DNA of 64,000 nt from Streptomyces phaeolivaceus. GTDB lineage: Bacteria > Actinomycetota > Actinomycetes > Streptomycetales > Streptomycetaceae. Both the position numbers and the translations under genes were made by a program. Below the pieces are notes generated by a model. That model worked only from the letters and a program-made list of their open reading frames with translations. It was not told where the DNA came from and searched no databases. The DNA lies in contig NZ_CP045096.1 of the NCBI RefSeq assembly GCF_009184865.1, forward strand, positions 10,044,001 to 10,108,000, given 5' to 3'. Shown here in pieces: positions 31,027 through 48,336 of the stretch; position 1 is the stretch's first letter; the number at the start of each line of letters is the position of its first letter.

Positions 31027-31086
31027 CCCCGGACGGCATGCTCTGCATCCGACCCCGTGCCGCCCGCTATCCCACAGGAGTCGATC

Positions 31087-32109: not shown

Positions 32110-32120
32110 GCGGCCCCGAA

Positions 32121-32175: not shown

Positions 32176-32197
32176 ACATTCGCTCTCCCCTCAGCGG

Positions 32198-32238
32198 GGG
32201 CGGCCGTCCCTTTCCCCCGACCGGGGGGACGGCCGCCC
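32198..32238 (+). terminator. Long GC hairpin between binding protein and permease genes
   Basis: GGGCGGCCGTCCC and GGGACGGCCGCCC form a 13-bp perfect stem around a 15-base loop. There is no T tract. Such hairpins between a binding-protein gene and its permease commonly stabilise the upstream message or attenuate the downstream genes, so the binding protein is made in excess. Confidence 0.6.
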
Positions 32239-32325
32239 GCTCGTCCTCCTGCCCTCCCTCCTGCCCCCCTCCTGGCCTCCGTTCCAGGGCGGGCGACGAC
32301 CTCTGTCTTCCGACAAGGACTTCGC

Positions 32326-33339
32326 ATGACAGCCACGACCACACCCCCGGACACGTCCTCGCCGTACGCCGAGCTCAAAGCACCGACCACGGCCCGCCGC
32401 CTGCTCACGGCACCGACCACCGGCCCCCTGGTCGCCCTCCTTCTCGCCTGCGCCTTCTTCTCCCTCTCGACCGACCAGTTCCTCACCGGCGGGAACTTCT
32501 CGCTGATCGTGCAGCAGGTCATGGTCGTCGGCACCCTCGCCATCGGGCAGACACTGATCATCCTCACGGCGGGCATCGACCTGTCGTGCGGCGCCGTGAT
32601 GGCGTTCGGCAGCATCATGATCGCCAAGATGGCCGCCGAGGGCTCCCTGCCACCGCTCGCCGCCATCGCCCTGGGCCTGGTCGTCTGCGGCGGCTTCGGA
32701 CTGCTCAACGGGCTGCTGGTGCAGAAGATCCCGCTGCCGCCGTTCATCGTCACCCTCGGCATGCTCAACGTGGCGTTCGCTCTGACGCACATCTACTCCG
32801 AGGAGCAGACGGTCACCAACCTGCCGGGCCCGCTGACGGCCCTCGGGCAGACGTTCCCGCTCGGCGGCACCGACATCACCTACGGTTCCCTGGTCACCAT
32901 CGCCCTGTTCCTCCTGTTCGCCTACGCGCTCAGCAGCACCGGCTGGGGCCGGCACGTCTACGCCCTGGGCAACAGCCCCGAGGCGGCGCGGCTGAACGGC
33001 ATCCGCACCTCCCGGCTGACCATCGGCGTCTACACCGTCGCCGGCGTCCTCTACGGCATCGCCGCCCTGCTGCTGATCTCCCGCACCGGCGTCGGCGACC
33101 CCCAGGCGGGACAGACCGACAACCTCGACAGCATCACCGCCGTGGTGCTCGGCGGCACCAGCCTCTTCGGCGGGCGCGGTTCGGTCCTGGGCACCTTCAT
33201 CGGCGTCCTCATCGTCGGTGTCTTCCGCAACGGCCTGCAGCTGATGGGCGTCGCCTCCATCTACCAGACCCTGATCACCGGCGTCCTGGTGATCCTCGCG
33301 GTGACCGTCGACCAGCTCTCCCGGAAGAAGGCCCGATGA
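32326..33339 (+). CDS. Sugar ABC transporter permease (RbsC/FrcC type)
   Basis: A 337-residue permease with about nine hydrophobic helices. Family segments: LAIGQTLIILTAGIDLSCGAVMAFGS, LPPFIVTLGMLNVAFAL, WGRHVYALGNSPEAARLNGI (the contact loop to the ATPase) and VVLGGTSLFGGRGSVLGT. It belongs to the CUT2 class, in which one ATPase serves a permease dimer. Its stop overlaps the ATPase start (ATGA). The gap to the binding-protein gene holds repeats and a hairpin. Confidence 0.92.
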   Translation: MTATTTPPDTSSPYAELKAPTTARRLLTAPTTGPLVALLLACAFFSLSTDQFLTGGNFSLIVQQVMVVGTLAIGQTLIILTAGIDLSCGAVMAFGSIMIAKMAAEGSLPPLAAIALGLVVCGGFGLLNGLLVQKIPLPPFIVTLGMLNVAFALTHIYSEEQTVTNLPGPLTALGQTFPLGGTDITYGSLVTIALFLLFAYALSSTGWGRHVYALGNSPEAARLNGIRTSRLTIGVYTVAGVLYGIAALLLISRTGVGDPQAGQTDNLDSITAVVLGGTSLFGGRGSVLGTFIGVLIVGVFRNGLQLMGVASIYQTLITGVLVILAVTVDQLSRKKAR

Positions 33340-34172
33340 CCACCCCCTCCGCCCCGACGCCCGTGCTGCAGGCCCGCGGTCTGGTCAAGCGCTACGGCCA
33401 GGTCACCGCCATCGACGGCGCCGACTTCGAACTGCTGCCCGGCGAGGTCCTCGCCGTCATCGGCGACAACGGCGCCGGCAAGACCAGCCTGATCAAGGCC
33501 CTCACCGGCGCGGTCACCCCCGACGCCGGCGAGATACGGCTCAACGGCGAGCCCATCACCTTCTCCGGACCGCAGAGCGCCCGCGCCCACGGCATCGAGA
33601 CGGTCTATCAGGACCTCGCCGTGGCCGCCTCCATGGACATCGCCTCGAACATGTTCCTCGGACGCGAACTGCGCCGCCCCGGCGTCCTCGGCAGCGTCTT
33701 CCGCATGCTCGACAAGAAACGCATGCGTCAGGAGGCCGCCGAGCACATGGCCGACCTGAAGATCGGCCTGCGCTCGCTGACCCAGTCGGTCGAGACCCTC
33801 TCCGGCGGACAGCGGCAGGCCGTCGCGGTCGCCCGGTCCGTCGCCTGGGCCCGCAGCGTCGTCGTCATGGACGAACCCACCGCCGCCCTCGGCGTCAAGG
33901 AGTCCGGACAGGTCCTCGACCTCATCCGACGCGTCCGGGACAAGGGCCTGCCGGTCGTCCTGATCAGCCACAACATGCCGCACGTCTTCGAGATAGCCGA
34001 CCGGATCCACGTCCACCGGCTGGGCAGGCGCGCCGCCGTGATCAAGCCCTCCGACTACTCCATGGCCGAGGTCGTCGCCATCATGACCGGCGCCCTCACC
34101 GTCGACGCGGCCGGAGATACTGTCGTGGCGGATTCCGCGGCGGCCAAGGCCGCGGGAGTCCAGGCCCACTGA
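33336..34172 (+). CDS. Sugar ABC transporter ATPase, single-domain
   Basis: A 278-residue ATP-binding subunit with Walker A GDNGAGKTSL, signature LSGGQRQAVAVARS, Walker B VVVMDEPTAAL and switch His in VLISHNMPHV. Unlike RbsA/XylG, which carry two fused ATPase domains, it has only one, like FrcA and related fructose importers. It overlaps the permease stop. The alanine-rich tail of about 20 residues is not conserved in type. Confidence 0.92.
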   Translation: MTTPSAPTPVLQARGLVKRYGQVTAIDGADFELLPGEVLAVIGDNGAGKTSLIKALTGAVTPDAGEIRLNGEPITFSGPQSARAHGIETVYQDLAVAASMDIASNMFLGRELRRPGVLGSVFRMLDKKRMRQEAAEHMADLKIGLRSLTQSVETLSGGQRQAVAVARSVAWARSVVVMDEPTAALGVKESGQVLDLIRRVRDKGLPVVLISHNMPHVFEIADRIHVHRLGRRAAVIKPSDYSMAEVVAIMTGALTVDAAGDTVVADSAAAKAAGVQAH

Positions 34173-34253
34173 CGTACGACCGAGCACTCACGGGGTCCGG
34201 CCCAGGCCGTGGCCGGAACCCGCGGGTGACGAGCACAGGAGACCGTTTCCTTC

Positions 34254-35285
34254 ATGGCAGCGAACCGCCGTCCCACCCTGGCAGACGTCGCCCGAGAAGT
34301 CGGCGTGAGCGCCAAGACCGTCTCCCGTGTCCTCAACGAGGACGGCCCCGCCTCGGCCCGGACCAGGGAACAGGTCCTCGCCGCCGTCGACAGGCTCGGC
34401 TTCCAGCCGAACCTGATGGCCCGCAACATCCGTGTCGGCGGCCCCGACACCACCGTGGGCCTGGTCATCCCCGACCTCGGCAACCCCTTCTTCGGAGCCG
34501 TGGCCCGCGCCATCGAGGACACCGTCCGCGACCGCGGTCTGACCCTGCTGATGGGTTCCTCCGCGGACGCGCCCGACCGTGAACGCGCCCTGACGGACAA
34601 GTTCCTGGCCCGCCGCATCAGCATCCTGATGGTCGTGCCGTCCGTCGGCGCCGACCACTCCCACCTCAAGTCCCACCGCACCGCCGGTCTGCCCGTCGTC
34701 TTCCTCGACCGCCCGGGGTCGGGCCTGCCCACGGACAACGTCGTCAGCACCAACCGCGACGGTGCGCACGACGGCGTCGCCCATCTCATCGCCCACGGCC
34801 ACCGGCGCATCGGCTTCATCGGCGACCTCCCCACCAAGCTCTACACCCGCCGCGAGCGCCTGGCCGGCTACCGCTCCGCCCTCCAGGAGGCAGGCCTCCC
34901 CGCCGACCGCGCCCTGATCACCAACGCCCACGACCAGCACGGCGCCTCCACCGCGACCTCCCAGCTCCTGGGCCTGACCGATCCCCCCACCGCCCTCTTC
35001 GCCGGCAACAACATCGTCGCGCTGGGCATAGTCACCGAACTCGCGCGCAGCGGACGCAAGGACGTCGCCGTCGTCGCCTTCGACGACGTCGAACTCGCCG
35101 AGGCCCTCGAACCGGCCCTGACCGTAGTCGCCCAGAACCCCGAGGAAATCGGCAGAACCGCAGCGACCACGGCCCTGTCCCGCCTCGACGGCGACCGCAC
35201 CCGCGCCCTCACCATCACCGTCCCGACCCGGCTGATCGTCCGGGGGTCGGGGGAGCGGCCTGCTCCGGCGTTGCGGGAGGCATGA
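34254..35285 (+). CDS. LacI-family repressor of the fructan regulon
   Basis: A 343-residue LacI/GalR regulator: HTH TLADVAREVGVSAKTVSRVLN with the hinge helix PNLMARNIR, then a ribose-binding-like effector domain (VGLVIPDLGNPFFGAVARAIED). It is the last gene of the cluster, 81 bases after the ATPase. The 14-bp palindromes TGTCAWCGWTGACA before the GH32 gene and the transporter have the length and central CG of LacI-family operators, so these are its probable sites. Fructose or a phosphorylated derivative would be the inducer; that is inference. Confidence 0.9.
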   Translation: MAANRRPTLADVAREVGVSAKTVSRVLNEDGPASARTREQVLAAVDRLGFQPNLMARNIRVGGPDTTVGLVIPDLGNPFFGAVARAIEDTVRDRGLTLLMGSSADAPDRERALTDKFLARRISILMVVPSVGADHSHLKSHRTAGLPVVFLDRPGSGLPTDNVVSTNRDGAHDGVAHLIAHGHRRIGFIGDLPTKLYTRRERLAGYRSALQEAGLPADRALITNAHDQHGASTATSQLLGLTDPPTALFAGNNIVALGIVTELARSGRKDVAVVAFDDVELAEALEPALTVVAQNPEEIGRTAATTALSRLDGDRTRALTITVPTRLIVRGSGERPAPALREA

Positions 35286-35753
35286 GGAGGGAGGCGGCGT
35301 CCGGCAGGGGTCGGGGGACCGCTGGGATCGAGGGTCCGGGGCGGTGCGGTCGCTCCACTCGTTGGCAGTGGCGATGGCGGATGTAGGAGAGCCCGTGATG
35401 CCGCGTCAGCAGCCGCACGGCCACCGGCTCCGGCACCCGCATGGTGATGACTGACTGCGGCTCCCAGACCTCGGAGTCCGGCCCATCACCCACTCCGGAC
35501 TCGAACGAGGCCCCGGCGGAGACGACGACCTCGCCCGCGCCTCATCGGCTTCCTGCACCCGGTGACCCCAGGCTGGTGTGCCTTCTGCCAACTGGTCCCC
35601 GTCGCGGCGCACGATCACGAAGCCTGTGGCGCGCCGGGGTGCCGGGCGAAGGGGAGCTCGCTTCTCGGGATCGCGAGTTCGACTGCGTACGTCGCTGCTC
35701 GTGTCCTACGCTGCCCGCGGGGCGCGGCGTCGGTGCCGGGCGGGGGAGGCGAC
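35286..35753. other. Intergenic stretch, no gene recognised
   Basis: About 470 bases between the LacI gene and the hydrolase gene. No family-like frame, tRNA or clear repeat is visible. Codon bias is lost relative to both neighbours. It should contain the hydrolase promoter. Confidence 0.4.
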
Positions 35754-36578
35754 ATGATCGTCGGGGTTCACGGCATTCGGTGCTACCGGTACCTGACCGA
35801 GGCCGGCAGCGCGGAGCTGGCCGGTGAGGCACTCGCCGCCGAGTGGAGTGAGGCGCTGGGGCTGCCCCCCGAGCCGAGGACACTTCACACCGCCTATTAC
35901 GCCCCGTTGCTCCACCTCGGAACCGCTCAGGGCTCGGACGAGGCCGAGTTGCTGCCGCCAGGAGGTCAACGGCTCCTGGTGGAGTGGGTGTCGGCGCTGG
36001 GTGCGCCCACGGAGGTCACGATGGGCCGGGGCACCAAGCCCGTCCGGCAGGCGGCCGAGTGGCTCGCCGAACGGTACGGTGCGGCGGCCCGACGGTTCGT
36101 GATCATGCTGTGCCGTGAGGCGGACACCTATGTCTCGGACCCCGGCTCGCCGCGACGGGCGGCCGTGCGCGCGGAGCTGGGGCGGGTGCTGGAAGAGCGG
36201 AAGCCCAAGGTGGTGATCGCGCATTCGCTGGGCTCCGTCGTGGCGTACGAAACGCTGTGGCACAGCCCGGTCGAACTCGACCTGCTCGTGACGCTCGGCT
36301 CGCCGCTCGGCATGCCGCACGCGTTCTTCGAGCGCCTCTCGCTGGGCGAGGGCAACGACGAGAACAAGGGGCAGCGGCCTCCGAAGGTCAGACGCTGGGT
36401 GAACATCGCGGACGTGGGCGACATCGTGGCCCTGCCGCGCGATCTGCCCAGCCGCTTCCCGGGCATCGACGCCCACTACGAGGTCTCCCTGGGCCTGGTG
36501 GCCTCGCACAAGGCGACACGCTATCTGGCACAGTCGGAACTCGCCCGCGAGCTGAGCCCGTTCCTCCCCTCCACCTGA
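35754..36578 (+). CDS. Alpha/beta hydrolase facing the caspase operon
   Basis: A 274-residue protein starting IVGVHGIRCYRYL, with the nucleophile elbow VIAHSLGSVVAYETL (serine near 164) and VTLGSPLGM and NIADVGDIVALPRDL downstream, as in serine esterase/lipase-like hydrolases of the DUF676 type. GGGGGAGG precedes the ATG. Its stop lies five bases from the stop of the caspase-STAND-WD40 gene, facing it. Hydrolases of this fold are among the effectors recorded with STAND and vWA-MoxR-VMAP conflict systems, so it may be an extra effector, perhaps acting on lipids. The association rests on position only. Confidence 0.8.
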   Translation: MIVGVHGIRCYRYLTEAGSAELAGEALAAEWSEALGLPPEPRTLHTAYYAPLLHLGTAQGSDEAELLPPGGQRLLVEWVSALGAPTEVTMGRGTKPVRQAAEWLAERYGAAARRFVIMLCREADTYVSDPGSPRRAAVRAELGRVLEERKPKVVIAHSLGSVVAYETLWHSPVELDLLVTLGSPLGMPHAFFERLSLGEGNDENKGQRPPKVRRWVNIADVGDIVALPRDLPSRFPGIDAHYEVSLGLVASHKATRYLAQSELARELSPFLPST

Positions 36579-36583
36579 GGCGG

Positions 36584-39500
36584 TCAGCTCTCCCGGTTCC
36601 CGGTACGGCGCAGCACCACGACCTCCCACTCGCAGCCCAGGACGAGTTGGTGATCGCGCAGGAGCAGGGCGGGCACCGTTCCCGGTACCCCGATGTTCTC
36701 CCGCAGCCGGCCCGACGCGAGGTCCCAGACGCGCAGGGCGCAGTCGTCGGCGGCGACCACCACCGGTACTCCGAGGACGACTCCGCAGGCCACGGCGTTG
36801 ACACCGCCCATGACCTCCAGCGGATCCAACAGCGCGGCGCCGCTCGCCAGGTCCCACACACGTACGGTGCCGTCCTGCCCACCGGTGACCGCGACCGCGG
36901 TGCCGTCGTCGAGCACCGTGCAGGCCAGTGCCGTCGCCCATCCGTCGTGTGCCGCGACCTGAGCCCGCGTGGCCAGGCCGGTCCGCAGGTCCCAGGTCCG
37001 CAGGGCGCCGTCGTCACCGCAGGAGACAGCGGTGGGTCTGCCCTCCACGTCCACGCGGGCCACGGCGTTGATGCCGCCGTCATGCCCGGCGAACGGCAGT
37101 CCGCGCCTCTCGCCCGACGCCGCGTCCCAGCAGAGCAGCAGCCCGTCGGCTCCCCCCGACAACAGGACGACGCGGCCGTCGAGGTCGGTGGCCGTGAGCG
37201 CGTGCACGGGGCCGGTGCCGGTGGTGACGGGGGTGCCGTACGGTGTGCCGTCGGCGACGTCCAGGAGGTGGATACGTCCGTCGGCTGCCCCCGCCGCGAG
37301 GACCGGGCGGCCGTCCAGAACGGCGGTGGTGAGGGCGTGCACGGGCGCGTCGCCCGCAGCGATGGGGGTGCTGCCGTACGGGGTTCCGTCGGTGAGGTGC
37401 CAGCGGTGGATGTGGCCGTCCGCACCCGCCGAGGCGAGCAGGACGCGGTCGGGGAGCGTGGCGATCGAGAGGGCGGTGACCCAGGAGGTGTGTCCGACCG
37501 GGGTGCTGGGACGCTGACGTTCCCACGGCACGTTCCACACCCGTAGCACCGGATCCGTGCCCGCGGAGATGACGACCGGCGGGTCGGACTTCGGGTGGGC
37601 GAGAGCGGTCACCGCGCCCATGTGGCCGACGAAGCGGTTGACCTCCGACAGCAGGCGGTTGTCCCCCTCCGGGTCCCAGCTGCGGATCGTTCCGTCGCTG
37701 CCGCCGCTCAGGATTCGGACGCCCTCCTCGCCGGTGACGCGGGTCAGCGCGTAGACATGGCGGTCGTGCGGTGCGGCCGACCGCGCGGTCAGCTCGTGGG
37801 TGCGGGCGTTCCACAGCCGTATGTGCCCGTCCTCTCCGGCGGTCACGATCTGTTCCGATCCCCGGGCCGTGAGGACGATGAGGGCTCTGACCGGTGACGG
37901 GTGGCGGATTCCGGGGCCCTGTTCCTCCTCGGTGACGAGCGACCAGAAGCGGATCCGGTCCGTGTCGTCCGCCGTGATCGCGAGGGCCTTGCCGTTCTCG
38001 TCCGTCGTCTGCGCGAGCGCGGTGATCCGGCCCTGACCGCGGGGCAGCCGCAACGGACTCACCGGTTCGTCGCCGTGGAGGTCCCACAGCAGCAGCCGGC
38101 CCGACTCGTCCGCGGTCAGCGCGCTCGGACTGCCCACCACCTCGCCGCACGCGAGCGCCCGCACCGTGGTGGTGTGCCCCTCCAACGACAGGCTCCGGGG
38201 CGTCAGGTCGGGCAGATCCCACAGCGCCAGCGCACCCCCACTGCCCGCACCCAGCAGGACCGGCGCCCCCTCGACCTCCGTACAGACGAGAGCCTGTACC
38301 TCCCCGAACCGGGGGTCCGCCGACGCCCGCTGTCGCCCCGTGCCGGTGTCCCACACGCGGATCCTGCCGTTCCTGCTCCCCGTGACGACGAACGGTGTGT
38401 CGCCTACCGTGGTCGCCGCCAGGGCGGTCACCCGGTTGTCCGGCACCTGGAGGGTGAACGCGTGGGCCGCGCTGATCCGGCCTCCCGTCGCCCAGGACGG
38501 ACGCCAGAGCATGAGGGACCCGGTGCCCGGGGCGGGATCGGCGAGCCGGTCGGCGAAGGTGCGGGCCTCGTGCCGGACCGCGTCGAGCGCCAGGATGTGG
38601 CGCCGCTGCCCGGCTTCCACCCGGCGGTGCAGATGAACGCTCGTCCGGTAGACGGCTGCCGCACTGTGCGCCGGCTCGGAGACGGCGTGCCGCAGTTCGG
38701 GCACGAGCCAGTCGGGGTCGGCGTGCACCAGGAACTCGGGGTCGCCGCACAACTCGTCGAACCGGCCGGCGTCCACCGCGTGCTGGGCCAGGTGGCGAAG
38801 CTGATAACTGTGCGGCACACCCCATGACGGGCGGTCGTCCGGGCCCGATCGCAAGGCCCCGACCAGTGCCTCGTAGACCAGAATCTCGGGAGTGTCGGAC
38901 AACTGCGGCCCCACGGGGACGGGATGTCGGCGCAGCTCGTCCGCGACACTCTTGTGCAGCAACCCGTACAGCATCGTGCCCCGGTCCGGCACCGAGCGCA
39001 GGAACGCCCTTACGTCGTCCAGGAGTTGTCCCACCGTGGTGTCGTCCACCCGCACGGTGGTGGGCGCGAACGCCCGTGCCACGGCGGTCACCGCGGACAC
39101 CGGCATACCGTCGCCCTGCGCGAACGAGAGGGCCGCGAGCACCGGACGCAGCAACTGATGGGTGTGGTCCTGACCGAAACTCAGGTCGAGGAGGCCGGGG
39201 AGAGTCTGGGGTACCTCGGCGCCGAGCTCCCGCGCCGTGGCCGCGTCCGCGAGCCGGGGGCGCACGGAGTCCTGGAGTACGTACGACGCGTACAGCGCCA
39301 CCATGAGGTAGGGGCCGGTCGCGGTGCCGGCGATCGCCTTGGCCGTGGCGGCGGCGAAGGCGGTCACCGCTTCCTGGGCGGGAGTGTCCGCCATGGTGTC
39401 GCCGAGCGCGACGGAGAGAAGCTTGACGATGTACTCCCGCAGGTCCTTCTCAAGGTCCTCGGGTCGGGTGGCGTCCAGGTCGACCAGGACCCCCGAGGTC

Positions 39501-41020
39501 GCGGCCGAGTCCACGAGCGTGGTGAACGGCTCCTCGTGACGGGCGCCCAGCAGGAGCCGGCACACGGGTCTGCCGTCGGGTCTGACGGCCGTGCCGAGCG
39601 GCTGGAGCAGCGTCGTCACGGCCTCGTGCGGGTACCGCATCTCGTCGAGTGCGTCGATGATCACCACGGGAGGCGGGCCCGTCAGCCGGCGGAGCGCGTC
39701 GATCAGCGCCTCCACGGTCCAGTCGGCGGGTGCCTCTCCGTTCGGTGCCGCCGGTCTCAGGCCCAGTTGCCGGACCAGGGCGTCGACGATCTCCCTCAGC
39801 GTGCGCTGCCGGGCGTGCACGGCGGCCGGTGGAGCGCTCACCGTCACGGACCGGCCCAGGGGCTCCCACAGCGGCCTCGTCCGTGCCCGCAGCTCCGGAT
39901 GGGCGGCACAGAGCAGGACCCCGATGAGCGCCGACTTGCCGGCTCCCGGGCTGCCCGTGACCACACAGATCCGCGAGGCGCTCTCGTCCTCCAACCATTC
40001 GGCCAGGTGAGCTGTCTCCGCCGCACGGCCGGTGAACAGGCCTTCGCCGTCCTCGGCCCGGGACACCTCGGGGAAGCCCGCCCCGCCGCGGGCGTGGCGG
40101 GCGAAGTGGGGCAGGCCGACGACCTCGTCCAGGAACGCGCCCAGCTCATGGCCCAGTTCGGCCCCGATCTCGCTGCGGACGCGGTTGCGCCGACTGGAGT
40201 CATGGCACGGGTTGGGCAGGAAGGGAAGGTCGGGAGCGGCCCTGTCGACCGCGACGGCGGTGACCCGTTGGCGCAGACCGCCGGAGGCTTCGGCAAGTTG
40301 ATCCACCCGTGCCTGGACCTCGCCGACGAACCAGTAGTAGTCGATGAAGGGCCGAGCGTCGTCGTACTGGATCCGCTTCTCCGCGATGTCGGTCAGCACG
40401 TCGGCGACCGCCCTGGTGAACCGTCCGTCCAGGGCGACCTGTGCCTCGCCCGACGCCGCCACCACCCAGGCACGGTTCGAACCGTCCAGGGAACGCAACT
40501 GCCAGTCCTGCCGGGCGGCCTTTCCCGCGTGGCACAGGTCGAGGAGGAAGAGCACGGCCGGACGGCCCGGGAAGTCCTCGATCGCCGCCAGCCACGCGTC
40601 CACCGAGGTCTCCGGCAGATACGCGCTGTCCGATCCGAGAACGTACAGCCCGGTGGCGCGGGGCAGTCCGTGACTGAGTACGTGCACGATCAACACGTCG
40701 TCGCCGGAGGACTCCATGAGCGCCTCGCGCATCGCGGCCCCGAGCACTGCCGCCGTCGGCCCGGGATCGTTGGCCGCGCCGGTGGCGGTGCCGGTGGTCT
40801 CGGTGCCCAGGGTGGTGAGGGTGGTGCAGTCGTAGCCGAAGGCCTCGTGTTCGAGGGCTTCCTTCAGGGCCGTCACATGGTCGAGGGCGAAGGGAAAGGC
40901 ATCGGGTTCGTCCTCGTCCTCGCTCCCGAAATCGGGATGGGGCGCGAATGCGGAGACACCGATGCTCAGGGCCCGGCGGCGCCGGGCGGGCGTGGGCGGT
41001 TCCCCCGTGGTGGCTGTCAC
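36584..41020 (-). CDS. Caspase-like protease / STAND NTPase / WD40 protein
   Basis: A 1478-residue multidomain protein. Residues 15 to about 270 are a caspase-like (C14) domain with catalytic His near 115 (HVLSHGLP) and Cys near 161 (LLDLCHAGKA). A STAND-type NTPase follows, with Walker A GSPGAGKSALI near 357 and Walker B VVIIDALDEM. From about 860 to the end are some 13-14 WD40 repeats (for example RIRVWDTGTG, LLLWDLHGD, TVRVWDLASG), enough for two propellers. This matches prokaryotic apoptosis-like sensors in which WD40 repeats sense a trigger, the NTPase oligomerises and the caspase is released. It starts with GTG overlapping the vWA gene stop (GTGA), making it the last gene of a four-gene operon. 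Confidence 0.93.
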   Translation of the reverse strand: MTATTGEPPTPARRRRALSIGVSAFAPHPDFGSEDEDEPDAFPFALDHVTALKEALEHEAFGYDCTTLTTLGTETTGTATGAANDPGPTAAVLGAAMREALMESSGDDVLIVHVLSHGLPRATGLYVLGSDSAYLPETSVDAWLAAIEDFPGRPAVLFLLDLCHAGKAARQDWQLRSLDGSNRAWVVAASGEAQVALDGRFTRAVADVLTDIAEKRIQYDDARPFIDYYWFVGEVQARVDQLAEASGGLRQRVTAVAVDRAAPDLPFLPNPCHDSSRRNRVRSEIGAELGHELGAFLDEVVGLPHFARHARGGAGFPEVSRAEDGEGLFTGRAAETAHLAEWLEDESASRICVVTGSPGAGKSALIGVLLCAAHPELRARTRPLWEPLGRSVTVSAPPAAVHARQRTLREIVDALVRQLGLRPAAPNGEAPADWTVEALIDALRRLTGPPPVVIIDALDEMRYPHEAVTTLLQPLGTAVRPDGRPVCRLLLGARHEEPFTTLVDSAATSGVLVDLDATRPEDLEKDLREYIVKLLSVALGDTMADTPAQEAVTAFAAATAKAIAGTATGPYLMVALYASYVLQDSVRPRLADAATARELGAEVPQTLPGLLDLSFGQDHTHQLLRPVLAALSFAQGDGMPVSAVTAVARAFAPTTVRVDDTTVGQLLDDVRAFLRSVPDRGTMLYGLLHKSVADELRRHPVPVGPQLSDTPEILVYEALVGALRSGPDDRPSWGVPHSYQLRHLAQHAVDAGRFDELCGDPEFLVHADPDWLVPELRHAVSEPAHSAAAVYRTSVHLHRRVEAGQRRHILALDAVRHEARTFADRLADPAPGTGSLMLWRPSWATGGRISAAHAFTLQVPDNRVTALAATTVGDTPFVVTGSRNGRIRVWDTGTGRQRASADPRFGEVQALVCTEVEGAPVLLGAGSGGALALWDLPDLTPRSLSLEGHTTTVRALACGEVVGSPSALTADESGRLLLWDLHGDEPVSPLRLPRGQGRITALAQTTDENGKALAITADDTDRIRFWSLVTEEEQGPGIRHPSPVRALIVLTARGSEQIVTAGEDGHIRLWNARTHELTARSAAPHDRHVYALTRVTGEEGVRILSGGSDGTIRSWDPEGDNRLLSEVNRFVGHMGAVTALAHPKSDPPVVISAGTDPVLRVWNVPWERQRPSTPVGHTSWVTALSIATLPDRVLLASAGADGHIHRWHLTDGTPYGSTPIAAGDAPVHALTTAVLDGRPVLAAGAADGRIHLLDVADGTPYGTPVTTGTGPVHALTATDLDGRVVLLSGGADGLLLCWDAASGERRGLPFAGHDGGINAVARVDVEGRPTAVSCGDDGALRTWDLRTGLATRAQVAAHDGWATALACTVLDDGTAVAVTGGQDGTVRVWDLASGAALLDPLEVMGGVNAVACGVVLGVPVVVAADDCALRVWDLASGRLRENIGVPGTVPALLLRDHQLVLGCEWEVVVLRRTGNRES

Positions 41021-43986
41021 GTCGCGCCCGGCTCCTGCCGCGACCAGCCCACGGGGTCGGCGCGAAGCGCCGCCGCGTCCTCCCCGGCACCGCACTCCTC
41101 GAACAGGTCCGCGAGCAGCGCCACCAGCGCCTGCACACCGGGATGCCCGGCATCGGCGGTGGCGGCCAACCGCCGCAGAGCGAGCGTCCCCAGCGCCCGG
41201 CAGCCCGTCGTGTCGCCGCAGGCACGCAGGTACCGCAGTTGGCCCAGTACGAGTTCGCGGACGTAGGCATCGGTGTCGCCGAGGGCACCCACCGGGTCCA
41301 GATGCCGGGTCAGCGCGCCGAATCGGGACCACAGCGCGGGGACGTCCGGCGCGTCGCGGCCGTAGTCCTCGACCATCCGGGCGCGCACCGCCCTGCGGGC
41401 CTCGGCCAACTCCTCTTCGGAGAACCGCTCCTGGCAGGCGCGCCGGACGACAGGGTGGACGAAGACGTACTCACCGCCCGGCTCACCGCCCCGCAGCAGG
41501 GCGAGGCGGCGCAACGCGGTGAGCCCCGGATCGAAGGCCTGCCCCGACTTGTTCGGCGATCGGCCGACCAGAAGTGTCAGGGGCACGGGGCCGGCGGCGA
41601 GGACGGCCAGCCGGTGCAGGAGGTCCCGGGCGGACGGTTCCGTACGCAGGACATGGTCGAGGGAGATCCGGCACGCTTCGACCGCATGGTCGGACACCGC
41701 CTCCGACGTCGCCTCGGACGCCGCCGAGGAGCCGTCGCCCGGCCCGGCGCGCTCGGGACCGGCCTCGGGCAGCTCGCCGGTGACCGCCAGGAAGGTGGCC
41801 GCCAGCTCCAGCGCGAGGGGAGATCCGCCGAACCGCTCCGCAAGGTGCCGGCCCTGCGGGGCCGTCACCTCCGTGGCGTGCAGCCGAGCCAGCGGGAAGG
41901 CCTTGCGGCGCCTCAGCGCGGGCACGCGGTGGACGGCGAACCCCTCGGGCCAGTCCGCGGCCGACGAGGTGATCAGCGTCGAGCGGCGGCCGGCGGGCAG
42001 ATCCGGCAGTACCTCTCCGGCCGCCGCGCCGTCCACGATCACCAGCCAGGACGGTTCGGTACCCTGCCGGCTCCGCCGCGCCAGTTCGTCGGCGAGGCGG
42101 GCCCGCTCGGCGCCGCCGACGGTGGGCGACCCCGCGGACAGCCACAGAACGAAGTCGAACGCCGAGCCGAGGGTGTACGCGTACTCCACCGCGACAGCCG
42201 TGGCACCTCCGCCCTCCGGCGAATACAGGACCTGGGGCGCCGTCCCACCGCTCGTCAGCGCCCGGTGCAACTCGTCCAGCAGCCGCTCACGGTCCAGCAG
42301 TTCGGCCGTCCGCGGCGGCACAGCGCCCCACACCTCGTGGGCGTCCGCTGCCGCGTCGGTCGTCACGTCGGGCATCCGGGGCCGTTCCAGACTTCGCGCG
42401 ACCGTCTCGTACTTCGCGTCGAGCCGGCGCAGCACATGCGCGGACACCTCGGCGAACGGCCGGTGTCTGCGCAGCTCCGCGACCGCGGTGTCGTCGTTGC
42501 GCAGCAGCGCGGCGAACTCGACCCGAGAGCCGTGCGCGGTTTCGAGGTACTCGGTGACGTACCGCAGGATCTGCCGTGCGGCCTTGCCGCGGAGCGCGCC
42601 GAGGAGTTCCGCGCGTACCCCCGGGCGGAAGTCGAAGACGATGTCGTCACCGCGTGCGCCGACGCTGTCCTCGGTGCGCTCCAGAAGGCCGCTGAGATAG
42701 ATCTCGGCGAGCTGGGAGGGACGCGGGTCGTTCAGCATCCGATGCTGCACGATGCGCATCACGGGTGGACTCAGCGCCACGGCGGACAGGTACACGATCA
42801 GGTTGTAGGCCTCCGGGCTGGCGTCGTTCCTGAACCGCTGCACCAGTTCGGTGGGGGAGAGTTCCGTCGTGGCCGGGTCGTCCGGGAGCTCCGGCCGCTG
42901 CGGGGGCGATGACCCGACCAGGGTGACCAGGGAGTCGACGACCGACGACTCCCCGCTGGTGAGCGATGCCCACGGGCCGATCGAGTCGGGGTCCAGCAAC
43001 AGCACGGGCACGGGCATGGGCGCACCGGGCTTCACGAGTCTGGTGTTGGCGGCGCCCGGACCGGGCGCACGCAAGGTGACCTTGTGCAGATTCAGCGGGC
43101 AGCGCTCCCACATCCTGCGGGGCAGGGGCTGCACGATGGCGACCGGACCGCTGCGTCCCCAGAGCCGGAGCAACTGCTCCAGCGTGCCGTCCGACCACGA
43201 GGGGCTGATGCAGTCCGAGACCACGAGCACCACCCGCCGTCCGGTCGGATCGACGAGTTCGCCGGGGCTGCTGTAGGCGGCCGACGTGGTCGACGCGCGG
43301 GCGGGGAGTCCACGCCGCAGGACGACCCCGAGCGAGCGGGACTCCTCCGACGGCAGAGACCACACCTGGACCGACCGGAAGGCGCCGGCGGTGTCCAGCA
43401 GGTCCCGGAATTCGCGTACCGCGCGGTCCCACACGGCCATGGACACACTGTCGTCGACGACCAGGGCGACATCGAGCCAGCGCACCGGAGCGGGGCGCAG
43501 CACCGGGAGCCAGAACCCGGTGTCGGCGATGCGCTCCACGGTGGCCTCCTCGTCCAACTGCAGCTCGGGCCCGGGGAAGGCACGGCCTCCCAGGGGGCGC
43601 AGTGCCCTGCGTAACGCGAGCACATCGCGCAGTGCGGGCGTCGTCGGCAGCCGGACCGGCGTCGCGTTCCCGACCGCGTCCTGCCCGCCGGGCAGGGCCA
43701 GGCGCGCCGACGCGGAGAGCACGTCCCGGGGAACGTCCGCGTACAGCTGGACGGGCTCCGAGTGCGGTGGGTCCGCCCCCGGTGGCCTGGTACGGCCCGC
43801 CGGCGGCCCGCAATCCAGCGGGGACCGGGCGTCCGGGACCGGTGGCTGTTCCCCGAGCCGGGCACCGGGGCGGCCGTTCGACTCCCGGGAGAGGCGCTCC
43901 GCCAGCCACAGGACATCGGCCAGTTCCTGCCAGGTCGGCTGATCCTCGACGTCGGCCAGGAGTCTGGTGATGAGATCGTCGGTCAT
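41017..43986 (-). CDS. vWA-like / STAND protein (SAV_2336 N-terminal type)
   Basis: A 989-residue protein. After a proline-rich N-terminus, a vWA-like domain starts near residue 170 with the MIDAS-type LDVALVVDDSVSM, continuing through VVLVVSDCISPSWSDG. The middle resembles the helical region of streptomycete SAV_2336-type proteins. From about 575 a STAND-like half appears, but its P-loop reads LYSPEGGGATAVAVEYA, lacking the Walker A lysine, and the Walker B position reads LVIVDGA. It ends in TPR-like helices. This would be the vWA member of a vWA-MoxR-VMAP ternary system. The start overlaps the MoxR stop and the stop overlaps the caspase gene start. Confidence 0.85.
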   Translation of the reverse strand: MTDDLITRLLADVEDQPTWQELADVLWLAERLSRESNGRPGARLGEQPPVPDARSPLDCGPPAGRTRPPGADPPHSEPVQLYADVPRDVLSASARLALPGGQDAVGNATPVRLPTTPALRDVLALRRALRPLGGRAFPGPELQLDEEATVERIADTGFWLPVLRPAPVRWLDVALVVDDSVSMAVWDRAVREFRDLLDTAGAFRSVQVWSLPSEESRSLGVVLRRGLPARASTTSAAYSSPGELVDPTGRRVVLVVSDCISPSWSDGTLEQLLRLWGRSGPVAIVQPLPRRMWERCPLNLHKVTLRAPGPGAANTRLVKPGAPMPVPVLLLDPDSIGPWASLTSGESSVVDSLVTLVGSSPPQRPELPDDPATTELSPTELVQRFRNDASPEAYNLIVYLSAVALSPPVMRIVQHRMLNDPRPSQLAEIYLSGLLERTEDSVGARGDDIVFDFRPGVRAELLGALRGKAARQILRYVTEYLETAHGSRVEFAALLRNDDTAVAELRRHRPFAEVSAHVLRRLDAKYETVARSLERPRMPDVTTDAAADAHEVWGAVPPRTAELLDRERLLDELHRALTSGGTAPQVLYSPEGGGATAVAVEYAYTLGSAFDFVLWLSAGSPTVGGAERARLADELARRSRQGTEPSWLVIVDGAAAGEVLPDLPAGRRSTLITSSAADWPEGFAVHRVPALRRRKAFPLARLHATEVTAPQGRHLAERFGGSPLALELAATFLAVTGELPEAGPERAGPGDGSSAASEATSEAVSDHAVEACRISLDHVLRTEPSARDLLHRLAVLAAGPVPLTLLVGRSPNKSGQAFDPGLTALRRLALLRGGEPGGEYVFVHPVVRRACQERFSEEELAEARRAVRARMVEDYGRDAPDVPALWSRFGALTRHLDPVGALGDTDAYVRELVLGQLRYLRACGDTTGCRALGTLALRRLAATADAGHPGVQALVALLADLFEECGAGEDAAALRADPVGWSRQEPGAT

Positions 43987-45029
43987 CAGAACCCTGGATC
44001 CAGACGCCTCATGACGGTGCGCAGCACGCCGTCTCCCTCTCGGGTCTCGCGGAGGCCGTCATCGGTTCCGCCACTGAGCAGCAGATAGACCGCGTTGAGA
44101 AGTTGATCGGTGGCGAGGGCCTCCGTGGGCCTGCGCCGGACGAACTCCTCGATCAGCGCCGCCCCTCGCTCCACGGCCTCCCGCCCGAGATGCGCCTCGA
44201 CGATACGGACGAGAAGGTCGAGGCCCGGTTCGGGAAGGTCGAGACGCAGACAGCGGCGCAGGAACGCCGGAGGGAACTCCCGCTCGCCGTTGCTGGTCAG
44301 CACCGTGAAGGGGAACGCGTCGGCGCACACGCGTCCTTGGTGGACGCGCACTCTCTCGCGTGGACTGTCGTACACCTGCACATGGGCCTCAGGATGGTCG
44401 AGGCGGGCGAGTTCGGGAATGACGAACTCGCCCTCTTCGAAGATGTTCAGGAGGTCGTTGGGCAGATCCGGGTCGCTCTTGTCGATCTCGTCGATCAGCA
44501 GCACCCGCGGCACCCCGCCGGGCAGCAGCGCGGTGCCGAGCGGGCCGAGCTGCAGATATCTGCCGATGCCCTGGCCATGACGGTCGAAGTAGGCCGAGTC
44601 TTCTGCGGGCACCACCGGGTCCGCACTCAGGTTGGCGTCCTGGAGGCGGCCCAGCGCGTCGTAGGCGTACAGGCCGTCGCGCAGGGTGGAGCGGCTGGTG
44701 ATCGGCCAGTTCAGCACACGGCCCAGCCGCAGCTCGTGGGCGACGTGGTACGCGAGGCTGGACTTGCCCGAGCCCGGTGGACCGGTGACGAGCAGGGGGC
44801 GCCGCAGGTACAGCGCGGCGTTGACGACGTCCACGATCTCCGGTGTGACCTGGTAGACGGCGCCGCGCAGCCGGGTGTCCGGCGCCGGGCGACCGTACGG
44901 CCATTCGGCCGCTGAGGGGGCGCGCCACGGCGGCGGCGGCGGCAGCTTCTCGATGCCGTCGTGCGGTACTCCCGTGCCTCGGTAGACGTGCCATGCGTGC
45001 GACACCAGCGATGCCTGCCCTTCGTTCAT
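43986..45029 (-). CDS. MoxR-type AAA+ ATPase
   Basis: A 347-residue AAA+ ATPase with Walker A GPPGSGKSSLAYHVA near 85, Walker B VLLIDEIDKSD near 178, sensor 1 VLTSNGERE and an arginine-finger region PPAFLRRCLRL. MoxR ATPases act with vWA proteins as chaperone-like activators, consistent with the next gene. About 50 proline-rich residues precede the core. It lies six bases after the VMAP gene and its stop overlaps the vWA gene start, so the three are co-translated. It would supply the NTP-dependent threshold switch of the conflict system; that role is from the family model. Confidence 0.93.
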   Translation of the reverse strand: MNEGQASLVSHAWHVYRGTGVPHDGIEKLPPPPPWRAPSAAEWPYGRPAPDTRLRGAVYQVTPEIVDVVNAALYLRRPLLVTGPPGSGKSSLAYHVAHELRLGRVLNWPITSRSTLRDGLYAYDALGRLQDANLSADPVVPAEDSAYFDRHGQGIGRYLQLGPLGTALLPGGVPRVLLIDEIDKSDPDLPNDLLNIFEEGEFVIPELARLDHPEAHVQVYDSPRERVRVHQGRVCADAFPFTVLTSNGEREFPPAFLRRCLRLDLPEPGLDLLVRIVEAHLGREAVERGAALIEEFVRRRPTEALATDQLLNAVYLLLSGGTDDGLRETREGDGVLRTVMRRLDPGF

Positions 45030-45035
45030 GAGGTC

Positions 45036-46553
45036 TCACAGAGGTGCGTGGAACCCTCCGGCCTGAACCGGGGAGTGTTCCGGGTCGTCCCACAGCAGAG
45101 CGAGGTCGGCGAACCGGCGCGCGTCTTCCAGCCCCGCGCTTCGTCTGCGGAAGTCCAAAATGGTGTGCGGAAGTCTGGCGCGTCCCCCCTCGTCGGCCAG
45201 TTCGGGAGCCAGCCTCTCCTTGAAGTAGCGAGTGCTCCGAGATCCCCCTCCGCGATCCCACAGCATGATGGGCACACCTGCCTCCAGGGCGGCCTCCAGG
45301 TGTTCCTGGAGGGTGTCCCCTCGGTCTTCCCAGGCTGCCGTCCCAGCGACGAGCACGGTGAGAGCCGGCATCATCCGCGGCACCAGGTCGTGTCGACCCG
45401 AGGCCGGGTGTTCCGCGTCGAGCAGGAGGGACGACGAGGCGTCCAGGTGTTCGTGCCGCAGTCGCCGCCACTTGGCCTCCCACAACCGGCGGACATCGGG
45501 ATCGCGTTGGCGGTCCTGGTCCCGTACGACGACGGGATACAGACATCCCAACGGCTGCTCCGGGCCGTCGGCGGACTCCGACACCTGCCATTGCTCCACG
45601 GGCAGGTTGATCAGTTCGCGGGGCAGCATGAACTCGATACGGCTCGGCCCGTCACGGTCGTACTCGCGCGCGGTGACGAGGAAGTCGTCGATCCTGGCCG
45701 AGATCTGGTCGAGGCGCTGCGGCTCGTCCTCATGGACGAGAGGCATCCACTGCCGGCCCCCGTGGCCGAGCCACACCGAGAGCAGATACTCCGGACGCCT
45801 CGGCAGAAAGGGCTGGAGACGAAGGACCAGGGTCACGCTCTCCCGTGGCCCGGGGCGGTCGGGGACGGTGGGGCCGGTCAGCCGAACGGCGGGGACGCCG
45901 AGGCGTTCGGCGACCCGGCCCGCCCACTCCCGCAGGCGCCGGCGGTCGTGCGGTGCCGAACGATCGGCGAGTGCGAGAACGAAGCGCACGAGCGGGGGGA
46001 CGTCCCTGGACGGACTGATGAGGTCCTCCAGCAGTTCCAGGGCGTGCCGAAGGTCGTCCGGCCGTTCCGGGACCAGCGGCGCCGCCCAGGCGTAGGCGCC
46101 GCGCCAACCGTCGTTCTCCCGCGGGTGAAGCATGCTCAGCAGCTCGTCGCGCTCGTCCCCGGTGAGCAGCGGGGGCGAGGCGAGCCGGGGCGTCAGCTCA
46201 CGGAAGCGCAGCGTCTCGGCGATGTCTCCGTGGAAGTCGCGCAGCAGGTCCACGAGTACGGGCATCACGTCGGGCCGTCGTGCGCACTGGCGGATCAGGG
46301 AGCGCGCCTGCTGGAGGGGATCGCCCCCGACCTCGATCTGTTCGCCGGTCTCCGCCGCCAGTTCCTCCAGGAGAACCTGGCGCGTCCGCTCGTCCCGGAA
46401 ACCGTCGAGACGCAGCAGGATCCGGGTCAGCTCGTCCAGGACCGCATCCGGGCCCTTCAAGCGCGCGCCACGGTCGAGCCGTCTGACGACATCGCGCCTC
46501 CATGAGGTCCGTATGCGGTGCGGTGAGGGTCCGAGATGGTCAAGTGCAGGCAC
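45036..46553 (-). CDS. VMAP-C domain protein (vWA-MoxR-associated protein)
   Basis: A protein of about 500 residues. The N-terminal helices (LDELTRILLRLDGFRDERTRQVLLEELA, then LIRQCARRPDVMPVLVDLLRDF) resemble effector-associated domains of the EAD2 type. A VMAP middle region follows, then VMAP-C with the hallmark IEFMLPRELINLPVEQW near residue 300. The catalytic effector domain usually fused in front is absent, but a broken trypsin-like gene lies divergently at 46804. The start is uncertain: GTG 46553 and TTG 46460 lack ribosome sites, while the best site (GGAGG, 46497-46501) serves ATG 46490 in another frame that stops after 11 codons. A frameshift in the GCGCGC run near 46465 may be present. 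Confidence 0.8.
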   Translation of the reverse strand: MPALDHLGPSPHRIRTSWRRDVVRRLDRGARLKGPDAVLDELTRILLRLDGFRDERTRQVLLEELAAETGEQIEVGGDPLQQARSLIRQCARRPDVMPVLVDLLRDFHGDIAETLRFRELTPRLASPPLLTGDERDELLSMLHPRENDGWRGAYAWAAPLVPERPDDLRHALELLEDLISPSRDVPPLVRFVLALADRSAPHDRRRLREWAGRVAERLGVPAVRLTGPTVPDRPGPRESVTLVLRLQPFLPRRPEYLLSVWLGHGGRQWMPLVHEDEPQRLDQISARIDDFLVTAREYDRDGPSRIEFMLPRELINLPVEQWQVSESADGPEQPLGCLYPVVVRDQDRQRDPDVRRLWEAKWRRLRHEHLDASSSLLLDAEHPASGRHDLVPRMMPALTVLVAGTAAWEDRGDTLQEHLEAALEAGVPIMLWDRGGGSRSTRYFKERLAPELADEGGRARLPHTILDFRRRSAGLEDARRFADLALLWDDPEHSPVQAGGFHAPL

Positions 46554-46803
46554 ATGGTACGAAGTTGCGGAGCCGTGTACCTGCAACTTTGCTCGAATGC
46601 CGACGAATCCCGAATCGGCGGCGGCGCCGTCCTCGGCAGGAGCGGCGGCGGTCCCCGTCGGCCAGCTGCGAACGTACATTCGTATTGCAACCGGAGTACG
46701 GCCTCTTTGTTGCTCATATATGCTTTATTTCCGGCCAGTTGGGGTAAGCGCTGTCCTGTGTGACCTTGATACCACCTTGTGGCATCAGCATCGGGGGTGC
46801 TGT

Positions 46804-47286
46804 GTGACGGGTGAGGAGACCATCGAGGACCTCCTGCTGCACGTCGTCGCGCAGATCAGCTGCGGCGAATCCGAGGGCTCCGGTTTCTTCATCGGTCCCG
46901 GCACCCTGCTGACCTGCGCACACGTCGTTCCGGAGGACGACTGCACCGTGCGGTGGCAGGGCGAGTCACGCCCTGCCAGGGTGCACCGGCGATTCCCGGA
47001 CGACGGAGATGCCGAGTTCCCTGCCGGCGATCGACCAGATGCTGGTCACCGTGCGCTGACCGCCTGCATGCCGGGCAGGTCGCTCTGCATCGCGGTGCCA
47101 TCTATCTCGAACATCCGCACTTCGTGGTCGCCACGCCGACCGAATGAACCCGCGCGAGGACGCCATCACCGTCCAGACCCGCAGCGGCTCGCGGCGGGCC
47201 TGGTTCCGCTAGGAGTCGGTCATGGACTACGACCGCAGCCTGGACCCCGGCGCCGGCGACGGGGAGCTGTCGACCCCGGCCGCTGA
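46804..47286 (+). pseudogene. Trypsin-like serine protease remnant next to the VMAP gene
   Basis: The frame starts with GTG and reads a trypsin-like domain opening: HVVAQISCGESEGSGFFIGPGTLLTCAHVV (catalytic His near residue 40), then ARVHRRFPDDGDAEFP. The following Asp strand (usually LPDLALL) is blurred and no GxSGxP serine motif appears in any frame to 47286; the rest is arginine-rich out-of-frame sequence. So it has decayed after the first beta-barrel. In many VMAP systems a trypsin-like domain is fused N-terminally to the EAD and VMAP regions. Here a separate, divergent copy persists across a 250-base, lower-GC promoter region. A shorter functional fold cannot be excluded. Confidence 0.6.
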
Positions 47287-47705: not shown

Positions 47706-48077
47706 TCAGATCCGCCAGGAGCGGATGCGGTCGGCCGTGTCGTACCCGTCGGCGCGGTCGGCGTCGATGTCGCGGGCGAGGTCGATCAGCGCGCCGTACG
47801 GCGGGTCGACGGTCTCGCCGGCGCCGTCCATGTAGGCGACGACGATCGCGGCGGCGTACAGGGCGTTGCGGGCCGGGAGGGGGCGCAGCCGGATCACGGC
47901 GTGCATCAGGGCTGCCGCGCGCCAGGCGTTGTCGACCCTGGCGCCGACCTGCGGGGTGTTGACGCGGTGGCGGGCGACGGCGGCCACGAGGTTGGAGAAG
48001 TCGTGGACCTCGGGCTGCTTGGGCAGTACTTCCGCCTGGCGTTCCAGCAGCCAGCGGATGTCGATGTGGAGCTCCAC
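47706..48077 (-). CDS. Fic-family toxin component
   Basis: A 123-residue protein reading MELHIDIRWLLERQAEVLPKQPEVHDFSNLVAAVARHRVN, AWRAAALMHAVIRLRPLPARNALYAAAIVVAYM and GALIDLARDIDADRADGYDTADRIRSWRI. This is a Doc/Fic-like fold known in streptomycetes as a toxin-antitoxin component. The canonical HxFx(D/A)GN(K/G)R active-site loop is not intact: the corresponding stretch is RPLPARNALYAA, with no histidine. It may be a diverged toxin. It follows the RHH antitoxin gene by one base, in an antitoxin-toxin operon. Confidence 0.78.
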   Translation of the reverse strand: MELHIDIRWLLERQAEVLPKQPEVHDFSNLVAAVARHRVNTPQVGARVDNAWRAAALMHAVIRLRPLPARNALYAAAIVVAYMDGAGETVDPPYGALIDLARDIDADRADGYDTADRIRSWRI

Positions 48078-48078
48078 C

Positions 48079-48336
48079 TCAGGCAGCCCGCCCCTGGCGC
48101 CCGGCAGCGTCCGGGCGGGCGGGCGCGTCGTCGGGGAAGGCCGCGTCGAACGCGTCCGCGTTGTCGGCGACGAACTGGCGGAAGACCTCCGCGGCGTCCT
48201 CGAGACGGGGGTCGCGGACCGCGTTGCGCGCGGCCTCGGTGATGAGCGCGGTCACCGTGGTGCCCTCTGTCTCGGCACGCTCCTGCAGCTGGGCGTGGAG
48301 TTCCTCGGGGACCCGGATCGTCACTGACTTCGACAT
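48079..48336 (-). CDS. Ribbon-helix-helix antitoxin
   Basis: An 85-residue protein with an Arc/MetJ-type start (SKSVTIRVPEELHAQLQERAETEGTTVTALITEAAR), followed by an acidic tail (DNADAFDAAFPDDAPARPD) that could wrap the Fic partner. The ATG at 48336 begins the conserved strand; a longer upstream frame is arginine-rich and unlikely. Direct repeats just upstream (48347-48366) fit autoregulation. It precedes the toxin by one base. Confidence 0.83.
   Translation of the reverse strand: MSKSVTIRVPEELHAQLQERAETEGTTVTALITEAARNAVRDPRLEDAAEVFRQFVADNADAFDAAFPDDAPARPDAAGRQGRAA

What the first reader, a model, noticed from the sequence alone, without database searches (positions are those of the whole stretch)
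35754..47286. Four-gene vWA-MoxR-VMAP operon ending in a caspase-STAND-WD40 protein
The sequence shows an uninterrupted minus-strand operon: VMAP-C protein, MoxR ATPase, vWA-STAND protein and a 1478-residue caspase/NTPase/WD40 protein, with junctions of +6, overlap and overlap. Ternary vWA-MoxR-VMAP systems are described by comparative genomics (Kaur, Burroughs, Iyer and Aravind) as NTP-dependent conflict systems. Here there are two NTPase switches plus a C14 protease with intact His/Cys, and two possible extra effectors flank it (alpha/beta hydrolase, trypsin remnant). I infer a suicide-type antiviral or self-recognition device with layered control.
Basis: partly seen in the sequence, partly recalled or inferred. 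Interest (0 to 1): 0.85.

Follow-up and report, generated by a model that had tools for sequence, protein, structure and literature searches.

The report
Bacterial death-switch operon with dead scaffold
A bacterial chromosome, apparently of a Streptomyces, carries a known type of suspected virus-triggered switch (VMAP-MoxR-vWA) joined to a caspase-like protease module and a partner hydrolase, while its own apoptosome-like part has lost residues needed to bind ATP; this suggests an inactive-plus-active death switch that can be tested.

Summary
The operon is real: VMAP, MoxR, vWA and a 1478-residue caspase-STAND-WD40 protein, junctions +6, 1-bp and 4-bp overlap. It is a VMAP ternary system (Kaur et al. 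2020), a known, common kind: 238 of 295 genomes of the genus hold a VMAP-C. What looks new is a rare subtype. (1) Four-gene order kept in 5 of 5 loci read as DNA, VMAP identity down to about 36%; a convergent alpha/beta-hydrolase in 4 of 4 testable. (2) None of 58 other VMAP loci, five of them cut short, showed this caspase. (3) The APAF-1-like domain on the vWA protein lacks the Walker-A lysine in 16 of 16 subfamily rows; 38 of 38 AP-ATPases from other VMAP loci keep it. (4) The caspase-STAND family keeps its catalytic residues and occurs with a hydrolase but no VMAP in sight in 11 of 12 loci fetched. Best reading: a VMAP core captured a caspase-STAND/hydrolase module, and its own AP-ATPase became a non-ATP-binding scaffold. 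Antiviral or suicide function is inference.

The parts
45036..46460 (-). VMAP protein, 474 aa (TTG start; the open frame runs on to ATG 46679)
   Evidence: Pfam VMAP-C, EAD2, VMAP-M0; database entries; start codon and S. dysideae comparison
46194..46424 (-). EAD2 adaptor domain; only copy over cut-off in the genome
45885..46166 (-). VMAP-M0 middle region
45081..45791 (-). VMAP-C domain; only copy found in the genome at E up to 0.01
43986..45029 (-). MoxR AAA+ ATPase with GPPGSGKS, LLIDEIDK, TSNGERE and FLRR motifs and the VMAP-type N-terminal motif WHVYRG
42529..43935 (-). vWA region of the vWA protein (SAV_2336 N-terminal family), DDSVS MIDAS-type motif from D178
   Evidence: NF041121 430 bits
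41047..42321 (-). AP-ATPase (APAF-1-like) domain of the vWA protein, without the nucleotide-binding lysine; the match to NF040586 ends at profile position 456 of 830
42202..42204 (-). A595, the position of the Walker-A lysine
   Evidence: A in 15 and S in 1 of 16 subfamily rows; K in 38 of 38 AP-ATPases of other VMAP loci
36584..41020 (-). Caspase-STAND-WD40 protein, 1478 aa
40061..41020 (-). Caspase-like domain (approximate end), His117 and Cys163
   Evidence: 136 of 136 rows keep both; positions
38801..40060 (-). STAND NTPase region (AAA_16, NPHP3_N matches), Walker-A K362, Walker-B D456; limits approximate
36584..38503 (-). WD40 propeller region (approximate start)
35754..36578 (+). Alpha/beta-hydrolase, 274 aa, Ser158, Asp223, His252, convergent with the operon, 5 bp between the two stop codons
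   Evidence: all three invariant in 9 of 9; naming them a triad is my reading. Pfam matches are sub-threshold

Best explanation
It is a VMAP ternary conflict system in which the switch core (VMAP, MoxR, vWA) controls a captured caspase-STAND-WD40/alpha-beta-hydrolase pair in trans. Shown: the domains, the conserved order, the loss of the Walker-A lysine in the vWA-fused AP-ATPase, intact motifs in MoxR, STAND, caspase and hydrolase, and the caspase-hydrolase pairing outside VMAP loci. Inferred: VMAP (through its VMAP-M and VMAP-C parts) and/or the WD40 propeller senses an intruder; MoxR uses ATP to remodel the vWA protein; the dead APAF-1-like domain works as a docking or inhibiting scaffold that holds or seeds the active STAND; the released STAND oligomerises, the caspase domains are brought together, and the caspase switches on the neighbouring hydrolase by cleavage (or acts with it) to kill or arrest the cell.
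For: Order VMAP-MoxR-vWA-caspase in 5 of 5 DNA loci (window, L007, L032, L052, L097) and hydrolase convergent in 4 of 4 testable. All 10 caspase proteins known or inferred to be VMAP-linked fall in one 24-row clade (SH-aLRT 100); all 12 unlinked ones lie outside it (quick tree of 71 rows; 5 of the 10 are linked only by a contig length shared with a VMAP or vWA relative). Walker-A lysine absent in 16 of 16 subfamily rows against present in 38 of 38 elsewhere, while the APAF-1 fold is still predicted. Caspase and STAND motifs kept in 136 of 136 rows. Hydrolase Ser, Asp and His in 9 of 9; hydrolase beside unlinked caspase-STAND genes in 11 of 12. dN/dS between our strain and S. dysideae is higher in VMAP (0.39) and the dead domain (0.40) than in caspase, WD40 and hydrolase (0.21-0.25); one pair of strains. 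Precedent: a caspase complex activates its partner nuclease in canu loci (PMC12799240, section 8 read).
Against: No experiment. No second EAD2 copy joins VMAP to the caspase protein, so the physical link is unexplained. The hydrolase is on the other strand, so it is not part of the operon transcript. The WD40 region is conserved between the two closest strains (dN/dS 0.24), which does not favour it as a fast-changing sensor; a raised dN/dS in the dead domain could be mere relaxed constraint. Contexts of 14 of the 24 clade members are unknown. The five loci were found by similarity to our own VMAP, and the 16 vWA rows by similarity to our own vWA protein, with context seen as DNA for only 5 of them. 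Non-canonical nucleotide binding is not excluded by sequence.
Confidence: 0.45

Rival explanations
1. Kaur-type cascade: the caspase is the signalling peptidase, normally fused to VMAP, here in a separate gene. On sensing, it cleaves the vWA protein and frees the dead AP-ATPase as a decoy or dominant-negative effector; the hydrolase assists.
For: Kaur et al. (PMC7159879; sections 9, 19, 30 and part 1 of section 35 read) report caspases on VMAPs, always with a neighbouring hydrolase gene, and inactive vWA-fused effectors. EAD2 on the VMAP is said there to recruit signalling components.
Against: The caspase carries its own STAND and WD40 and belongs to a family also found without VMAP nearby; no EAD2 copy was found on it.
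Confidence: 0.25
2. Reversed flow, as proposed in PMC10907252: the vWA protein is the sensor and passes the signal through MoxR to VMAP, whose EAD2 recruits a partner encoded elsewhere; the caspase module is a second, parallel output.
For: Proposed there for VMAP systems diversified by DGRs (passages seen).
Against: No match to a lectin or repeat domain was found on our vWA protein beyond the AP-ATPase, and no EAD2 partner over cut-off in the genome.
Confidence: 0.12
3. Two autonomous systems that merely share an operon: the caspase-STAND/hydrolase pair acts alone and is only co-expressed with the ternary core.
For: The pair occurs without VMAP in the stretch fetched in 11 of 12 loci.
Against: Four-base gene overlap, order kept in 5 of 5 loci, linked proteins in one clade, and loss of the Walker-A lysine in this vWA subfamily but in none of 38 others.
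Confidence: 0.1
4. A developmental or kin-recognition cell-death device of mycelial growth rather than an antiviral one.
For: VMAP systems are concentrated in multicellular bacteria (PMC7159879, section 9 read).
Against: Rare and patchy: 3 of 295 genomes of the genus, our own included, at E up to 1e-30, with few candidates scored per genome; unlike a developmental gene.
Confidence: 0.08

Closest known systems
VMAP ternary conflict systems (Kaur, Burroughs, Iyer, Aravind 2020, PMC7159879; sections 9, 15, 19, 24, 30 and part 1 of 35 read, passages of others)
   Same: VMAP-C, VMAP-M0, EAD2, MoxR, vWA protein, strict order VMAP-MoxR-vWA, caspase with neighbouring alpha/beta-hydrolase gene, inactive domain in the vWA effector position
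   Different: Caspase is neither on VMAP nor on vWA but in a separate fourth gene with its own STAND and WD40; the vWA-fused AP-ATPase lacks the Walker-A lysine; no second EAD2 copy was found; the text I saw does not describe this combination, and its source-data tables were not available
VMAP subtype with vWA-fused AP-ATPase and peptide-processing genes (PMC7159879, section 24 read)
   Same: The vWA protein ends in an AP-ATPase that matches NF040586, a family named for the FxSxx-COOH system
   Different: AP-ATPase lacks the Walker-A lysine and matches only the first 456 of 830 profile positions; peptide-processing neighbours were not searched for
iSTAND ternary systems (PMC7159879, passages of section 20 seen)
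   Same: MoxR-vWA core plus a catalytically inactive STAND module
   Different: VMAP is present here; the inactive STAND is fused to vWA, and a STAND with intact motifs is encoded beside it
canu caspase-nuclease loci (Tuck et al. 2025, PMC12799240; abstract, passages and section 8 read)
   Same: Caspase paired with an adjacent hydrolytic effector; the paper describes protease-effector pairs moving between immune systems
   Different: Partner here is an alpha/beta-fold enzyme with Ser, Asp and His, not an MBL-fold nuclease; cleavage is untested
APAF-1/CED-4 apoptosome (PDB 3sfz, 1z6t)
   Same: Predicted APAF-1 fold of the vWA C-terminal domain; STAND and WD40 in the neighbouring protein
   Different: Nucleotide-site lysine lost in one partner; protease fused directly to the STAND in the other

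Membership tests
VMAP ternary system | VMAP-C domain in the third component | tested here: met
   153 bits against cut-off 27
VMAP ternary system | Gene order VMAP, MoxR, vWA from 5' to 3' | tested here: met
   also L007, L032, L052, L097
VMAP ternary system | vWA protein with family-specific flanking regions | tested here: met
   NF041121 430 bits, cut-off 200; DxSxS motif. Against: no Pfam vWA hit, and the AlphaFold model of this part is of low confidence
VMAP ternary system | MoxR N-terminal motif WxhapG | tested here: met
   WHVYRG at residue 13; the pattern I used matched 3 of 5 loci
VMAP ternary system | MoxR N-terminal motif PsWRxa | tested here: inconclusive
   PPWRAP at residue 33: P.WR present in 5 of 5 loci, but the last position is not aromatic
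[quoted passage not shown]
   One EAD2 over cut-off in the genome (the same search also gave sub-threshold hits in 3 of 14 control genomes); none credible in caspase, vWA, MoxR, hydrolase or other window frames; the weak genome hit lies in a glycosyltransferase-like frame by my reading. A very divergent copy could be missed
Caspase-hydrolase pairing of VMAP systems | Caspase gene with neighbouring alpha/beta-hydrolase gene | tested here: met
   4 of 4 testable linked loci; 11 of 12 unlinked
iSTAND ternary system | Inactive STAND in place of VMAP | tested here: not met
   VMAP is present
EACC1 two-gene system | Upstream EACC1 gene and EACC1-type caspase | tested here: not met
   Upstream gene is the vWA gene; NF047832 was not among matches of our caspase protein at E up to 0.1, though a distant homologue, P0055, matches it weakly
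AVAST (Avs) | Match to an Avs model | tested here: inconclusive
   PADLOC matches of the caspase protein were HEAT-ARM_XIII (E 3.4e-34, in the WD40 region), PDC-S41 and mad8; no Avs model
canu caspase-nuclease | MBL-fold nuclease partner | tested here: not met
   Partner matches alpha/beta-hydrolase models weakly and keeps Ser, Asp, His
Antiphage system | Protection against phage | not testable with these tools
   needs an experiment

The most novel reading that the evidence does not exclude
A split bacterial apoptosome under AAA+ control: a nucleotide-dead APAF-1-like domain, tethered to a vWA co-chaperone, licenses in trans an active caspase-STAND-WD40 protein when MoxR remodels it, and the caspase then activates a dedicated alpha/beta-hydrolase killer. 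This would be a bacterial dead-helper/active-executor STAND pair, reached by capture of a free-living caspase-hydrolase module.
Probability: 0.3. Interest if true: 0.78.

Novelty: new variant of a known kind. Interest (0 to 1): 0.52.

Why it matters
VMAP systems are widespread in multicellular bacteria (PMC7159879), yet in the listings and passages I saw none is tested by experiment. This subtype narrows the question: one protease, one STAND with intact motifs, one dead STAND and one hydrolase, each with residues that can be mutated singly. Loss of the ATP-binding lysine in one STAND goes with presence of an intact one in the same operon, so the controlled-scaffold idea can be tested directly. 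The free caspase-STAND/hydrolase pair looks like a module that different conflict systems can take up.

Tried and rejected
Trypsin fragment as effector: its His region is recognisable, but the score is sub-threshold, the only plasmid match is a cyanobacterial protease over 54% of the query, and DNA similarity to S. dysideae ends before it. My first protein query for it, was in a wrong frame with three stops and tested nothing; the corrected query found nothing better than E 0.11 in six relative loci. Rejected as a part.

EAD2 hidden in the caspase or vWA protein: profile search and hhalign gave nothing credible.

Caspase domain and vWA against solved structures by sequence: no match; VMAP: two weak sugar-binding proteins. 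Plasmids: VMAP no match; the caspase protein matched 178 plasmid records, all under 60% identity, 8 of them over at least 80% of its length, not followed. Phages: VMAP no match. Promoter, terminator and Rfam scans: none found. GC profile: no clear break seen. A search for CATRA papers gave unrelated listings.

The first gene-calling script had a bug and printed only false extensions; repeated correctly. In one search ten STAND rows looked empty because a second domain overwrote the first; one search corrected this to 136 of 136. My codon-position count took in badly aligned bases; one search recounted the 219-base extension (4, 4, 6 differences).
Full report
What is there. The minus strand carries four genes in one run: VMAP, MoxR, vWA and a caspase-STAND-WD40 protein, with junctions of 6 bp, a 1-bp overlap and a 4-bp overlap. 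Pfam and NCBIfam place VMAP (EAD2, VMAP-M0, VMAP-C) and the vWA protein (NF041121, 430 bits; then an AP-ATPase region matching NF040586 at 200.6 bits, under its cut-off) far above chance. VMAP probably starts at TTG 46460, giving 474 aa: the seven other database entries are 470-483 aa, and in S. dysideae the ATG of the longer frame is ACG and the extension holds a stop. An alpha/beta-hydrolase gene converges on the operon with 5 bp between the stop codons.

Place. The window is 10,044,001-10,108,000 of contig C2, which is 10,116,136 bases long, so the operon lies about 25-36 kb from the contig end. It has one VMAP-C at E up to 0.01 and one EAD2 over cut-off.

Relatives. A search with our VMAP found 3 of 295 genomes of the genus at E up to 1e-30, our own included. 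A VMAP alignment found 2 of 394 genomes of the family at 1e-70, our own and one new, and 3 of 199 relatives at 1e-60, our own, G041 and G069 again. The caspase domain found the same 2 of 394 at 1e-50. Only 4 to 8 candidates per genome were scored in these searches, so rarity is an estimate. The named collection gave S. dysideae. The four-gene order stands in all five DNA loci: window, L007, L032, L052, L097; the hydrolase is convergent in four, and L097 ends before it. In L007 similar DNA runs from window 35663 to 46716 and stops at both sides just outside the five genes, so the block looks like one transferable unit, hydrolase included.

Comparison with other VMAP loci. VMAP-C itself is common: 238 of 295 genomes. 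I fetched 60 VMAP loci from the listed matches, mostly best-scoring or with short VMAP frames, and L032 and L052 on purpose; they are not a random sample. VMAP was found in 60 of 60, vWA in 57, MoxR in 46, a caspase of our type and the hydrolase only in L032 and L052 (at 30 bits or more). So 0 of the other 58 showed them; five of the 58 are shorter than 20 kb because their contigs end. Caspases of other types were not sought.

The captured module. The caspase-STAND part keeps His, Cys, Walker-A lysine and Walker-B DE in 136 of 136 rows: our own, 15 loci and the 120 listed of 248 database homologues, a few proteins counted twice. Some homologues also carry PP2C, kinase, DnaJ or Hsp70 domains (for P0055 the PP2C is C-terminal). 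From 13 listed places without a known VMAP partner (3 candidates scored per genome) I fetched 12: none showed VMAP in the stretch; 11 have a related hydrolase in the same direction beside the caspase-STAND frame or, in L088, possibly beyond a WD40 frame, and the twelfth ends at the contig edge. In a quick tree of 71 rows (57 of the 120 listed homologues, our own, L097 and the 12), all 10 VMAP-linked proteins are in one clade of 24 (SH-aLRT 100), and all 12 unlinked lie outside; 14 clade members have unknown context, and a few long branches are unsure. The simplest history is one capture of a caspase-STAND/hydrolase pair by a VMAP core, with the hydrolase turned round and the core's own AP-ATPase losing its nucleotide site. 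The order of these events is not shown.

Mechanism. Inferred chain: sensing by VMAP or WD40, MoxR-driven remodelling of the vWA protein, release or seeding of the active STAND by the dead APAF-1-like scaffold, caspase activation, hydrolase activation, cell death or arrest. Between our strain and S. dysideae dN/dS is highest in VMAP (0.39) and the dead domain (0.40), 0.33 in the vWA part, and 0.21-0.27 in MoxR, caspase, STAND, WD40 and hydrolase; one pair only. This fits VMAP rather than WD40 as the variable side, but relaxed constraint explains the dead domain equally well.

Comparison with the literature. Kaur et al. 2020 (PMC7159879) describe the parent kind, the caspase-hydrolase rule and frequent inactive effectors. 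They place caspases on VMAP or vWA, or occasionally in stand-alone genes next to VMAP; their source data were not available to me, so examples of this subtype may be in their tables. PMC10907252 offers a reversed flow (passages). PMC10910872 reports VMAP systems near type III CRISPR loci (passages). Tuck et al. 2025 show by experiment that a caspase complex can activate its adjacent partner in canu loci. Searches for a described VMAP-linked caspase-STAND-WD40 gene, or a tested VMAP system, showed none in the listings or passages I saw, within an open-access library only; most listed papers were not opened.

Verdict. Observation confirmed; kind known; subtype new as far as these searches reach; mechanism plausible and untested.

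Noticed in passing
window 47706-48336 (-): A ribbon-helix-helix antitoxin-like gene (48079-48336, RHH_1 26 bits) directly followed by a 123-aa frame without any Pfam or NCBIfam match; the arrangement resembles a toxin-antitoxin pair.
   Followed up: partly
window 46804-47082 (+): Start of a trypsin-like protease with its His region, then the frame loses similarity: a decayed fragment divergent from the operon.
   Followed up: partly
window 53359-55215 (+): One 618-aa frame joins a siderophore-interacting FAD protein (SIP, FAD_binding_9) to an O-methyltransferase with its dimerisation domain.
   Followed up: no
window 51624-53231 (-): A 535-aa frame with two AraC-type HTH_18 stretches, as if two AraC regulators were fused.
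   Followed up: no
window 27111-35285: GH32 gene beside a LacI-type regulator, with sugar-kinase-like and ABC sugar transport-like frames between them (my reading): a likely sugar-use locus next to the operon.
   Followed up: no
[not shown]
   Followed up: partly
L083-L093: Free caspase-STAND genes paired with a co-directional alpha/beta-hydrolase gene in 11 loci, a candidate stand-alone conflict module.
   Followed up: partly
window 61669-63354 (+): ADP-ribosylglycohydrolase family gene.
   Followed up: no
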